Assembly (NCBI GenBank): GCA_030644725.1
Contig: CP130629.1
Coordinates: forward strand, 3,239,501-3,303,500
From: Candidatus Electrothrix communis
GTDB taxonomy: Bacteria > Desulfobacterota > Desulfobulbia > Desulfobulbales > Desulfobulbaceae
DNA: 64,000 nucleotides
Direction of reading: 5' to 3'
The notes beneath the pieces are model-generated. The model was not told the origin of the DNA. It did not search any database and saw nothing but the letters and a program-made list of their open reading frames with translations. This document shows positions 3,246 through 50,136 of the stretch, in pieces. A program made the translations under genes and the position numbers. Each line of letters opens with the position of its first letter. Position 1 is the stretch's first letter.

Positions 3246-3331
3246 GGAGGAATGGCCGAGTGGTTGAAGGCGGCGGTCTTGAAAACCGTTGTACGAAAGT
3301 ACCGTGGGTTCGAATCCTACTTCCTCCGCCA
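3246..3331 (+). tRNA. tRNA-Ser (anticodon TGA)
   Basis: An 86-base class II tRNA. The acceptor arms GGAGGAA (3246-3252) and TTCCTCC (3321-3327) pair fully, followed by discriminator G and an encoded CCA (3329-3331). The anticodon TGA is at 3280-3282 in a 7-base loop closed by a 5-bp stem. The long variable arm (TTGTACGAAAGTACC region) and the GGTTCGAATCC T-arm are typical of serine tRNAs. It reads UCA-type serine codons and is not tRNA-Sec. Confidence 0.97.
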
Positions 3332-3364: not shown

Positions 3365-3457
3365 GGAGAGATGACCGAGCTGGCCGATGGTGCTCGCCTG
3401 CTAAGCGAGTGTGGGGGTCAAACTCCACCGAGGGTTCGAATCCCTCTCTCTCCGCCA
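3365..3457 (+). tRNA. tRNA-Ser (anticodon GCT)
   Basis: A 93-base class II tRNA 33 bases after the first. Acceptor GGAGAGA (3365-3371) pairs with TCTCTCC (3447-3453), and CCA is encoded at 3455-3457. The anticodon stem CTCGC/GCGAG (3393-3397, 3405-3409) presents GCT at 3400-3402. The long variable arm and the GGTTCGAATCC T-arm are present. It decodes AGC/AGU serine codons and is probably cotranscribed with the preceding tRNA. Confidence 0.97.
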
Positions 3458-46877: not shown

Positions 46878-48641
46878 TTACTTTTTTACTTTTTTTCCCT
46901 GAGGAATAATCGTAGGAGGAACTGCCGCTTCAGGAGCAGTCGGTTCTGAAGATTCTTCTTGCTGATCTTTCACCTCCTTTACCTCTTTCTCCTTTCTTTC
47001 CTCTTTTACCTCTTCTTTCACCTCTTTTTTTCGCTGGGCCGACCCGCAACCTAACCGCTTCGCTTTGTCGGCAAAAATAAAATTATCGTCATGCTCAGGG
47101 GTATGACATCCTAGGCAGACTTTCTCATCTGGACGGGCAACAGGCACTTTTCCCTGGCCTGCGCTATGCGCCGCTGCCGGACCATGACAGGCCTCGCAGC
47201 CAACGCTTTTCAATGACTTGGGCAGCATGAGTAGGAGATTACTTGCCTTGACCTTGTCGGCATCATAAAACGGCAACGTGACGTGACAGAGCACACAGTC
47301 TTCGTTAAACTGCTGATTTGCCTTTTCCAGAGTGGTCCAAGCCTGTGCATGTTTGCTGTCCTGCCAAACAGTCATCTGGGCTGCATGGCATTCCTGACAT
47401 TTCTGTGACCCTGCTACATCCTGAAGGGTAATTGTGGGGTCGTGCTGACCTGTTTTCGCAATTCGTTTTTGGTTGATCTGATTTGCCTTTTGGATAGCCC
47501 GGTCAATAATCTTTTTGACCTCTGGATCTTCCGGTAACGAGGTGCTCAGAGGAATAAAGCTATTGGTATATTTGCACAGACCTTCATCATCCGGGGCAGA
47601 ATCCCTGCTTTTCTTTAACGCCTTTATACTTTGAACAAGCTCTTTTTTCTCCGCTGATAATTTTTTATACCCTTTATCCTTTGCCAAGGCCGCCTTCTTT
47701 TTTTGTTTTTCCAGGCGGGCAAGCTGTTGATTCAATCTCTCCAGGCGATCCTCCTCGGTTCGGATCCTATTAAAAGACTTATCCGTCCATTTTCCGGCTT
47801 TGTTCCACTCAATTCGCATCATGCCTAGGTATTTTCCTCGGGTTCCGGTTTGGGCAATCAGCGTATTTTCAATTTTATAGGGTTCTGTGGTCGGAGCGGC
47901 ATGGCTCGATTCAAGAATCATATGAAGGCCGTCAACAGTTTCAGCTATTTCTTTATTGATTTGGTAGGAATAGCTTGAAAGAAGAATGGTCATATCAACT
48001 TTCTTTCCAACTTCAGCAAGGGTCTTAGGCAGCGTATCCTGCCAGGGAAGGATGGTATAGCTTTTCTCCTTACCTTCTCCAGCATGCTCACCCTGATCAT
48101 CCGTCAGTCCAAATAAAGCAATCTTTAAGCCACCAACTTTTGTAATAAGGTAGGGTGTGAATATGGGTTGCTTTTTCTCTGGATCAACCAGATTCATGGA
48201 AAGCCAAGTGGTTTTATGACGTTCTTGAAGCTCTTTCAATAAACTGATACCACCAGCCAAGTCGTGGGCACCGATCCCAAGAGCCCGGCAGTTCATCGCC
48301 TGCATAGCCGCAGCAAGACCATCGGCTTGGGCTTTTTCCGCGAGTTCTTTTTTAGCCTGTATTTTTTTATGCTTAAAAAGCAGAGAACCGCTATCAACAA
48401 AGAAAAAAGGAAGCTTTTCCTGCTCAGCAAATTTTGTTATCTGTAATGCTTTTCTGGACAGCCCGCCCAGTTGTTTTTTCTTTCAACCACAGGGCTGGAG
48501 CTCACCACGTACATCATTTCCGTAAAAAAGCAAAAATTCTTCTGCCCAAGATGGCGCCACCACGGTCAGCAGCAAAATAAGCAGCAGAAAAAAATGGGGG
48601 AATATGCGTTTTCTTTGAGACAGCATCGCAATAAAATTCAT
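46878..48641 (-). CDS. Candidate selenoprotein: 5'-nucleotidase-like domain fused to tetraheme cytochrome c
   Basis: About 587 residues from the ATG at 48641, reading through an in-frame UGA at 48485-48483 (codon 53). The signal peptide (HFFLLLILLLTVVAPSWA) is upstream of the UGA. The sequence around it reads ELQPCG-UGA-KKKQLGGLSRKA. The family pattern I know is PCGC...LGGL.RRA, so Sec would replace the second Cys. A metallophosphatase/5'-nucleotidase-like domain follows to about residue 290, then a charged coiled coil (about 295-350). Four CxxCH haem sites lie at about 415, 449, 482 and 509 (CQECH, CVLCH, CEACH, CLGCH). The tail is Lys/Glu-rich. Without readthrough the first in-frame ATG is 48305, which loses the signal peptide that a periplasmic cytochrome needs. 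Proposed role: exported redox protein. Confidence 0.8.
48454..48470 (-). promoter_or_regulatory. SECIS-like hairpin after the in-frame UGA
   Basis: On the coding strand CTGG (48470-48467) pairs with CCAG (48457-48454) around a 9-base loop that begins with G. Sixteen bases separate the UGA from the loop, within the range known for bacterial SECIS elements. The stem is only 4 bp, so it is supportive but not decisive. Confidence 0.4.
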
Positions 48642-48774
48642 GATATCATAAAATATGTTTTTTGGTTTCGAGGTGTGTTACGAGGTCTTAAGGGTAGTTA
48701 TGAGTAGTTATGGATCTATCCGTTGGTCAGGGGGGGAAGGTCATCAGAAAACGAATAACCTCTCCTTCGGTGGG

Positions 48775-50136
48775 TTATCCCGGCTTTTTTGTCTTCTTCC
48801 GCTGTTGCTGTGCCCGTTGCTGAAGAATTTTTCGCCATTTACTCAAGCGATCATGGATAACAGCTTCGAATCCTCTCTCCGTGGGCCGATAATAACGCTT
48901 TCCAGCGAGTTTATCTGGCAAATGTTCCTGAGCGACCAAGCCATCCTCGGCGTCATGGGCATACTGATATCCTTTCCCGTACCCGATTTTTTCCATTAAA
49001 CCTGTGGGGGCATTGCGGATATGGAGGGGAACGGGCAATGCGCCGGAACGACGTATTTCTTCTTTAATCTTTTTTTCTGTTAAATACAAGGCATTGCTTT
49101 TCGGGGCCGTAGCAAGATACACTGTGGCCTGATATAAGGCCAGTTCACCCTCAGGAGAACCGAGCATGTCGTAGGCCCTACGGCAGCTGATTGCCACATC
49201 CAAGGCTCTTGGATCGCTGACTCCCACATCCTCGCTGGCAAAACGAATCAAACGTCTGGCAATATAGAGCGGGTCTTCACCGCTGACGAGCATTCGCCCC
49301 AACCAATAGCAGGCTCCATCTGGGTCACTATCACGCAGGCTCTTATGCAGAGCTGAAATCAGGTTATAATGCTCTTCTCCGGCTCGATCATAACGAAGTG
49401 TCTGCCCCTGCACCACCTCAAGAATGGTTTTGCGAGTGATAGCCAACGGTATATCGCTCTCTTGTTCTACGATAAGAATTGCAGCGGTCTCAAGATAGTT
49501 AAGGGCCCGCCGACAATCGCCGTCAGCAGCTTGGGCGATCATCTCTGCAGCCTCTCTTCCCATTTCAATATCATAACCGCCTAATCCGGTGGCTTTGTCG
49601 TGCAAAGCCCGCTGGAGAATGCTTATGATATCTTCAACGGTAAGTGGCTGCAAAAGCAGCAGCTGGCAGCGTGAGAGCAGGGGCGCAATAACCTCAAAGG
49701 AGGGGTTTTCCGTTGTTGCGCCGATCAAGGTAAGTAGACCGCTTTCCACATGGGGTAATAAGGCATCCTGCTGATTCTTGTTAAAACGATGAATTTCATC
49801 AACAAAAAGGATGGTTGGTTTATCTTCTCCCTCTTTTTTTCCTTTTGTCTCCTCAACAATTTTCCTAATCTCTTTCACCCCAGATAACACGGCTGAGAAG
49901 AATATAAAATCAGCCTGGATACTATGGGCCAAAATAGAGGCCAAGGTGGTTTTTCCAGAGCCCGGTGGACCCCAGAGAAGTAAGGAGGGAATTTTGCCGT
50001 TGCTTATTAACTCACGGAGTAATCTTCCCCTGCCGACAAGGTGCTCCTGTCCGGAAAAATCATCCAGCGAAACCGGTCGCATACGCTCTGCCAACGGTAT
50101 CGAATGATGATTTTCTATCTTCTTGTTTTCATTCAT
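48775..50136 (-). CDS. rarA: Replication-associated recombination protein A (RarA/MgsA)
   Basis: A 453-residue AAA+ clamp-loader-like ATPase acting at stalled replication forks. LAERMRPVSLDDFSGQEHL is at the start, Walker A LLLWGPPGSGKTTLA near residue 52, Walker B ILFVDEIHRFNKNQQDALLP and sensor 1 LIGATTENPSFEV. The C-terminal tetramerisation part has RRLIRFASEDVGVSDPRAL and HIRNAPTGLMEKIGYG. It is upstream of the cytochrome gene on the same strand with a 133-bp gap. Probably a separate unit. Confidence 0.96.
   Translation of the reverse strand: MNENKKIENHHSIPLAERMRPVSLDDFSGQEHLVGRGRLLRELISNGKIPSLLLWGPPGSGKTTLASILAHSIQADFIFFSAVLSGVKEIRKIVEETKGKKEGEDKPTILFVDEIHRFNKNQQDALLPHVESGLLTLIGATTENPSFEVIAPLLSRCQLLLLQPLTVEDIISILQRALHDKATGLGGYDIEMGREAAEMIAQAADGDCRRALNYLETAAILIVEQESDIPLAITRKTILEVVQGQTLRYDRAGEEHYNLISALHKSLRDSDPDGACYWLGRMLVSGEDPLYIARRLIRFASEDVGVSDPRALDVAISCRRAYDMLGSPEGELALYQATVYLATAPKSNALYLTEKKIKEEIRRSGALPVPLHIRNAPTGLMEKIGYGKGYQYAHDAEDGLVAQEHLPDKLAGKRYYRPTERGFEAVIHDRLSKWRKILQQRAQQQRKKTKKPG

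What the first reader, a model, noticed from the sequence alone, without database searches (positions are those of the whole stretch)
48454..48641. In-frame UGA in an exported nucleotidase-cytochrome gene: candidate new selenoprotein with a Cys-Gly-Sec motif
Seen: from the ATG at 48641 to the stop at 46878 one frame reads signal peptide, ELQPCG, UGA, KKKQLGGLSRKA, and then the full cytochrome, with a single UGA and no indel. The next in-frame ATG is 48305, and none exists between. The signal peptide required by a c-type cytochrome is therefore upstream of the UGA. Known: 5'-nucleotidase-type domains fused to multiheme cytochromes carry PCGC before an LGGL.RR pattern, and the UGA replaces the second Cys. 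Inference: Sec is inserted. A 17-nt hairpin follows at SECIS-compatible distance. Sec in a haem protein would be notable for electron transfer or sulfur/selenium chemistry.
Basis: partly seen in the sequence, partly recalled or inferred. Interest (0 to 1): 0.93.

Follow-up and report, generated by a model that had tools for sequence, protein, structure and literature searches.

The report
Known selenoprotein family in cable bacterium
A gene in an electricity-conducting cable bacterium very probably reads one 'stop' codon as the selenium amino acid selenocysteine, but it belongs to a selenoprotein family that databases and papers already list and whose job is still open.

Summary
In detail: one frame, 48641-46878 (-), 587 residues, interrupted only by UGA at 48485-48483. 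The selenocysteine reading is strongly supported. The genome has tRNA-Sec, selA, selB and selD. The UGA sits at the same place in 33 of 34 family loci read, and exact Cys homologues exist. The hairpin after it meets the published bacterial SECIS criteria and recurs in the family, though its stability alone is unremarkable. The novelty claim fails: the protein scores 605.9 bits against NCBIfam NF041198 'UshA-like (seleno)protein', cut-off 275, and UshA-like CxU selenoproteins are tabulated in print in 2008, 2022 and 2026. What may be worth keeping: the fold is that of 5'-nucleotidases and SoxB, but none of 33 Sec loci keeps more than 3 of 6 metal ligands, while one ordinary nucleotidase used as control keeps all 6; C51, G52 and U53 are invariant. 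So it is probably a periplasmic Cys-Sec redox domain joined to a tetrahaem cytochrome rather than a nucleotidase. Substrate unknown. New member of a known kind.

The parts
46878..48641 (-). UshA-like tetrahaem selenoprotein gene (587 codons, UGA at codon 53 read as Sec)
   Evidence: NF041198 605.9 bits vs cut-off 275
48543..48641 (-). probable signal peptide, residues 1-33 (upstream of the UGA)
   Evidence: by eye from the translation; no signal-peptide predictor was run
47772..48542 (-). 5'-nucleotidase/SoxB-like metallophosphoesterase-fold domain, residues 34-290, with degenerate metal site
   Evidence: profile matches to PDB nucleotidases and SoxB, Foldseek on a low-confidence model, ligand table; Pfam-A alone lists no nucleotidase domain here at E <= 1
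48483..48491 (-). Cys51-Gly52-Sec53 motif
   Evidence: 33 of 33 Sec loci aligned carry C51, G52 and U53
48483..48485 (-). UGA codon read as selenocysteine
48454..48470 (-). bacterial SECIS-type hairpin, 6-bp stem, 5-nt apical loop GGGCU starting 18 nt after the UGA
   Evidence: criteria from PMC13188914 (passage)
47073..47414 (-). tetrahaem cytochrome c554-like domain, residues 410-523, four CxxCH motifs
   Evidence: PF13435 8.1e-12, PF14522 1.4e-6; cytochrome c554 1bvb

Best explanation
The gene is a bacterial selenoprotein gene of the known UshA-like (NF041198, PCGU) family. SelB binds the hairpin at 48470-48454 and Sec is inserted at the UGA, giving an exported protein: signal peptide, a 5'-nucleotidase/SoxB-fold domain, a helical linker, and a tetrahaem c554-like cytochrome. 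(Sec coding: strongly supported by sequence; SelB binding, export and haem attachment: inferred from motifs.) The dimetal phosphohydrolase site of the fold has decayed, and an invariant Cys-Gly-Sec motif sits in the loop after the first strand, close in sequence to the first metal-ligand motif of active nucleotidases. I infer that the Cys-Sec pair is the working site: it is oxidised and reduced as a selenenylsulfide, or it attacks a substrate, possibly a sulfur species, and electrons pass between it and the four haems and so to or from other periplasmic cytochromes.
For: tRNA-Sec 74.8 bits, cut-off 47, also by ARAGORN; selB 374.4, selA 628.6, selD 342.6 bits, all over cut-off; selD itself carries a UGA. 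UGA at the same column in 33 of 34 loci; exact Cys homologues L061, L062, L063, L064, L070. The window's hairpin meets the four printed bSECIS criteria. A hairpin at this place is as strong in at most 5% of synonymous recodings for 21 of 39 Sec genes and in at most 20% for 36 of 39; for 6 Cys genes 0 and 1. NF041198 605.9 bits. Fold: 3ivd 1.1e-28, SoxB 4uwq 3.3e-19, cytochrome c554 1bvb 8.3e-19; Foldseek UshA 1e-12. Metal ligands in 33 Sec loci: D43 25, H45 2, D86 9, N125 0, H126 5, H223 5; best loci 3 of 6; the one control nucleotidase, L072, 6 of 6. Thirty of 33 Sec loci have four CxxCH motifs. Neighbours: 9- and 16-haem cytochromes in 2 of 12 regions looked at (L081, L085), a thioredoxin-domain protein in 1 of 12 (L082).
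Against: No direct evidence of translation or of redox activity. Hairpin strength by itself is unremarkable: in a scan of the whole region 3.5% of recodings reach the window's stem score and 33% its free energy; family medians are 15% and 33%; z is -2.13 or -1.55 vs shuffles, depending on the stretch. L077 has only a 3-bp stem there (p 0.59). The test fixed the loop position after the family had been seen. L043 has no Cys or Sec in the motif, and L051 has a second in-frame TGA about 330 codons after the first. Both AlphaFold models are poor (pLDDT 51 and 47), so the place of the CGU loop relative to the old metal site is not shown by structure. Three of 33 Sec loci (L051, L056, L058) have no CxxCH, so the cytochrome is not essential to the Sec domain. 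In the other 9 of the 12 neighbourhoods I named no haem or thiol neighbour, and the window's own neighbours say nothing about function.
Confidence: 0.6

Rival explanations
1. The UGA is a real stop: the gene is broken, or only the part after 48305 is translated from its ATG.
For: Mechanically the longest stop-free ORF starts at 48305.
Against: That product would have no signal peptide although it holds four c-type haem motifs. The stretch between UGA and 48305 shows third-position excess against relatives, and invariant residues lie on both sides of the UGA. The UGA is kept in 33 of 34 loci. The Sec machinery is present.
Confidence: 0.03
2. The selenoprotein is a working nucleotidase or SoxB-like hydrolase in which Sec is a metal ligand.
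For: Clear homology to nucleotidases and to SoxB; an invariant D127 and mostly kept D43 and D83 could still bind a metal together with Cys51 and Sec53.
Against: N125 is found in 0 of 33 loci, H45 in 2, H126 in 5, H223 in 5, and no locus has more than 3 of the 6 canonical ligands. I recall no precedent for Sec as a ligand of such a site.
Confidence: 0.12
3. The UGA is read as another amino acid, such as Trp, or by general read-through.
For: None specific.
Against: tRNA-Sec with a TCA anticodon is present. The five homologues without UGA that align exactly carry Cys, not Trp. The UGA is followed by a SECIS-like hairpin.
Confidence: 0.01

Closest known systems
NCBIfam NF041198 UshA_like_PCGU, 'UshA-like (seleno)protein' (UshA-like, COG0737, CxU, in published selenoproteome tables)
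   Same: Match over 6-518 of 519 positions, 605.9 bits vs cut-off 275; CxU motif; one in-frame UGA.
   Different: Nothing that sets it apart as a new kind; it has a K/E-rich C-terminal tail (residues ~533-587) beyond the match.
NCBIfam NF049981 UshA_like_Sel_2 (UshA-like selenoprotein family 2, CxxU)
   Same: Weak homology (35.4 bits); Sec in a nucleotidase-like domain.
   Different: Below its cut-off of 140 bits; motif spacing CxxU rather than CxU.
Periplasmic 5'-nucleotidase UshA / CD73 / putative nucleotidase 3ivd
   Same: Fold of the N-terminal metallophosphoesterase domain.
   Different: Canonical metal ligands mostly lost; Cys-Gly-Sec in the loop after strand 1; Pfam-A lists no nucleotidase C-terminal domain; tetrahaem domain instead.
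Thiosulfohydrolase SoxB
   Same: Same fold; TIGR04486 55.8 bits, 4uwq 3.3e-19.
   Different: Far below the SoxB cut-off of 550 bits; metal ligands mostly lost; Sec present; cytochrome fused.
Cytochrome c554 (PF13435, 1bvb)
   Same: Tetrahaem CxxCH pattern of the C-terminal domain.
   Different: Here it is one domain of a larger selenoprotein.

Membership tests
NF041198 UshA-like (seleno)protein | Whole-protein score over the curated cut-off (275 bits) | tested here: met
   605.9 bits on the read-through protein; 599.1 bits in the six-frame search
NF041198 UshA-like (seleno)protein | PCG(U/C) motif with UGA at the second redox position | tested here: met
   PCGU at residues 50-53
Bacterial selenoprotein gene | Sec machinery in the genome: selA, selB, selC, selD | tested here: met
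Bacterial selenoprotein gene | bSECIS: loop 3-9 nt, stem 4-16 bp, G in the first two loop bases, spacing 16-37 nt, MFE <= -7.5 (PMC13188914, passage) | tested here: met
   loop 5 nt GGGCU, stem 6 bp, spacing 18 nt, -8.4 kcal/mol
Bacterial selenoprotein gene | Cys-containing homologues at the Sec column | tested here: met
   L061, L062, L063, L064, L070; exception L043 PSGR
Bacterial selenoprotein gene | Sec shown in the protein | not testable with these tools
   needs mass spectrometry or selenium labelling
UshA-type 5'-nucleotidase | Canonical dimetal ligands (D, H, D, N, H, H) | tested here: not met
   Window protein keeps D43 and H126 of the 6; no Sec locus of 33 keeps more than 3; control L072 keeps 6
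SoxB | Score over the TIGR04486 cut-off (550 bits) | tested here: not met
   55.8 bits
Multihaem c-type cytochrome | CxxCH motifs and an export signal on the same chain | tested here: inconclusive
   Four CxxCH motifs and PF13435; the signal peptide was judged by eye only and is on the chain only if the UGA is read through

The most novel reading that the evidence does not exclude
The family is a redox enzyme made from a dead hydrolase: a nucleotidase/SoxB fold whose dimetal site was dismantled and replaced by a Cys-Gly-Sec site that exchanges electrons with a fused tetrahaem cytochrome. In cable bacteria it would be a periplasmic seleno-oxidoreductase for sulfur compounds (persulfides, thiosulfonates) feeding or draining the filament's electron pool.
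Probability: 0.2. Interest if true: 0.65.

Novelty: new member of a known kind. Interest (0 to 1): 0.3.

Why it matters
The practical point is annotation: a plain gene caller would cut this gene at 48485 or start it at 48305 and lose either the haem part or the export signal. The scientific point is smaller: an old 'UshA-like' selenoprotein family, for which I found no tested function in the passages I saw, appears not to be a nucleotidase, because its metal ligands are mostly gone while the Cys-Sec motif is invariant. That makes a role as a haem-linked redox protein directly testable, here in a cable bacterium, an organism studied for its electron transport.

Tried and rejected
New selenoprotein family: rejected. 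True stop or pseudogene: rejected. Column-wise covariation of the SECIS: not run, because the stem slides between registers (for example CUGGGC/GUCCAG, CUUGGCG/CGCCAAG, UUCGGG/CCCGAA) and fixed columns would miss it; a synonymous-recoding test was used instead, first over the whole region (weak), then with the loop position fixed (stronger but chosen after seeing the family). Rfam over 48200-48800 gave three matches far below their gathering scores; over the whole window only two tRNAs. The gene neighbourhood of the window is uninformative (a rarA/mgsA-like ATPase upstream and an lptC-like gene convergent; named by eye). Plasmid collection: no match. Paper searches: 'cable bacteria'/'Electrothrix'/'selenocysteine' (20 of 67 papers listed, none of those with the word selenocysteine), 'PCGU' (20 of 55 listed, nothing relevant), UshA with selenoprotein terms, Olavius selenoproteome (8 of 15 listed), multihaem with selenocysteine, NF041198 (one paper). 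In PMC13047784 six terms including seleno, UshA and SoxB had 0 occurrences in the main text. PMC7435645 was listed but not opened.

Full report
What is there. The minus-strand frame from the ATG at 48641 to the TAA at 46880-46878 encodes 587 residues with one internal stop, the TGA at 48485-48483 (codon 53). The first in-frame ATG, GTG or TTG after that TGA is the ATG at 48305, codon 113. The product reads: likely signal peptide (residues 1-33, by eye), FLLFYGNDVRGELQPCGUKKKQLGGLSRKA, a nucleotidase-like domain, a helical linker, four CxxCH motifs, and a K/E-rich tail.

Whose genome. The closest named relatives found are Candidatus Electrothrix marina (83% identity, best segment) and Ca. E. 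aarhusensis (82%), so the window is from a cable bacterium or a close relative. The genome is one contig of 4,845,585 bases.

Is Sec inserted? The genome has one clear tRNA-Sec (74.8 bits, cut-off 47; ARAGORN), selB (374.4 bits), selA (628.6) and selD (342.6), all over cut-off. I read 34 loci of the family: 4 from the search for related loci and 30 from the genome search, the window's own among them; these 30 are high-scoring rows from a 297-genome sample of the phylum. Of the 34, 33 have TGA in the motif CGU. The exception, L043, reads PSGR. From the same sample I fetched 20 more places, 12 of them rows that one search listed without TGA. Five have Cys at the exact place: L061, L062 and L070 LCGC, L064 PCGC, L063 SCGC. 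Six are PCGU (L074-L079). L073 is PCVU and L080 ACPSU. Six have other Cys arrangements (L065-L069, L071). L072 is an ordinary nucleotidase without the motif. So where the motif aligns exactly the place is Sec or Cys, apart from L043.

SECIS. After the UGA comes CUGGGC-GGGCU-GUCCAG at 48470-48454: 6-bp stem, 5-nt loop beginning GG, 18 nt after the UGA, -8.4 kcal/mol. It meets the four criteria printed for the bacterial SECIS in PMC13188914 (passage). In most of the family the same place holds a hairpin, in sliding registers. Against synonymous recodings with each gene's own codon usage, a hairpin with its loop at this place is as strong in no more than 5% of recodings for 21 of 39 Sec genes, and in no more than 20% for 36 of 39; the window's value is 0.2%. 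In 6 Cys genes the counts are 0 and 1. That script took only genes with xCGU or xCGC in the first 150 residues, so L063, L066, L067, L069, L071, L073 and L080 were not in it, and two of its six Cys genes (L065, L068) have a shifted motif. Against this, the loop position was fixed after looking. When the whole region is scanned the window's value is 3.5% and the family median 15%; by free energy both are about 33%. The LGGL.RK protein motif makes hairpins likely here anyway. The evidence from position and from the Sec-versus-Cys contrast is fair to good; that from stability alone is weak.

Is it new? No. The read-through protein matches NCBIfam NF041198, 'UshA-like (seleno)protein', with 605.9 bits, cut-off 275. 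UshA-like CxU selenoproteins are in Table 2 of PMC2398784 (2008; 76 Sec sequences in 20 samples, 92 Cys homologues; passages and part 1 of section 6), in a table of PMC9312934 (2022; passages) and of PMC13188914 (2026; passages, which names NF041198). PMC2398784 remarks that, of its 20 main families, all except SelD, FdhA and UshA-like hold conserved Cys-based redox motifs. The passages I saw give no tested function for the family, and none of the papers listed (20 of 67) mentions selenocysteine in cable bacteria. I therefore call the gene a new member of a known kind; whether this very gene is already annotated somewhere I did not test.

What does it do? By profile the N-terminal domain is a relative of 5'-nucleotidases and SoxB (3ivd 1.1e-28, 2z1a 1.7e-26, 1ush 6.7e-20, 4uwq 3.3e-19), and Foldseek on a low-confidence model agrees; Pfam-A alone shows no nucleotidase domain at E <= 1. 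I compared six canonical metal-ligand positions in 33 Sec loci: D43 is kept in 25, H45 in 2, D86 in 9, N125 in 0, H126 in 5, H223 in 5. No locus has more than 3 of 6 (18 have one, 8 two, 4 three, 3 none), whereas the ordinary nucleotidase L072, the only such control, has all 6 (that these six are the ligands is recalled for the family, and the positions were matched through the alignments). In the same loci Y40, G46, E47, C51, G52, U53, G59, G60, G85, D127, G131, L135, L221 and G269 are invariant. This pattern says that the hydrolase site is gone and suggests that the Cys-Gly-Sec motif took over. The motif lies in the loop right after the first strand, next to the first ligand motif. That it faces the old pocket is my inference; the models are too poor to show it.

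The haem side. The C-terminal domain resembles tetrahaem cytochrome c554 (PF13435; 1bvb). Thirty of 33 Sec loci have four CxxCH motifs; L051, L056 and L058 have none. So the Sec domain also occurs alone, perhaps with separate cytochromes. I looked at 12 larger regions. In 2 the gene lies beside 16-haem and 9-haem cytochromes (L081, L085), and in 1 beside a thioredoxin-domain protein (L082); I tested only 8 neighbour proteins against NCBIfam. All this points to redox work; it does not name the substrate.

Verdict. Observation confirmed, Sec reading strongly supported, novelty claim not supported. Most likely a periplasmic Cys-Sec redox domain wired to a tetrahaem cytochrome. My odds: about 0.95 that Sec is inserted, about 0.99 that the family is the known one, about 0.6 that the domain is redox and not hydrolytic, and low on any named substrate. 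The confidence given for the best explanation is the 0.6, because its statement includes the inferred mechanism.

Noticed in passing
own genome G000:C1:1791388-1792317 (L026) and C1:1480453-1481394 (L027, L028): selD itself has an in-frame UGA (LARTCGU). A second selD-like gene shows no UGA in the matched stretch and reads with a partly repeated segment in its middle, perhaps a decaying or changed duplicate.
   Followed up: partly
L043 (G111:C168:34-1512): A family member with four CxxCH motifs in which both redox residues are lost (PSGR in place of PCGU); the same genome has another family gene with one TGA (G111:C38).
   Followed up: partly
L065-L069, L071, L073, L080: Relatives with other thiol/selenol arrangements at the same loop (PEGCGC, PGGCGC, PCGTC, PCSTC, SGCC, PCVU, ACPSU), as if the motif could move within the loop.
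   Followed up: no
G012:C97, G050:C35, G170:C129 (adjacent); G199:C46, G258:C39 (within about 4 kb): Two UshA-like genes lie together; in 4 of these 5 cases both have a UGA. In G012 and G199 one of the two has no CxxCH (L081, L082).
   Followed up: no
L051 (G088:C2): A family gene with a second in-frame TGA about 330 codons after the first; whether that one is its real stop was not tested.
   Followed up: no
window 3246-3328 and 3365-3454 (+): Two neighbouring tRNA genes; they also give weak matches to the tRNA-Sec model below its cut-off.
   Followed up: no
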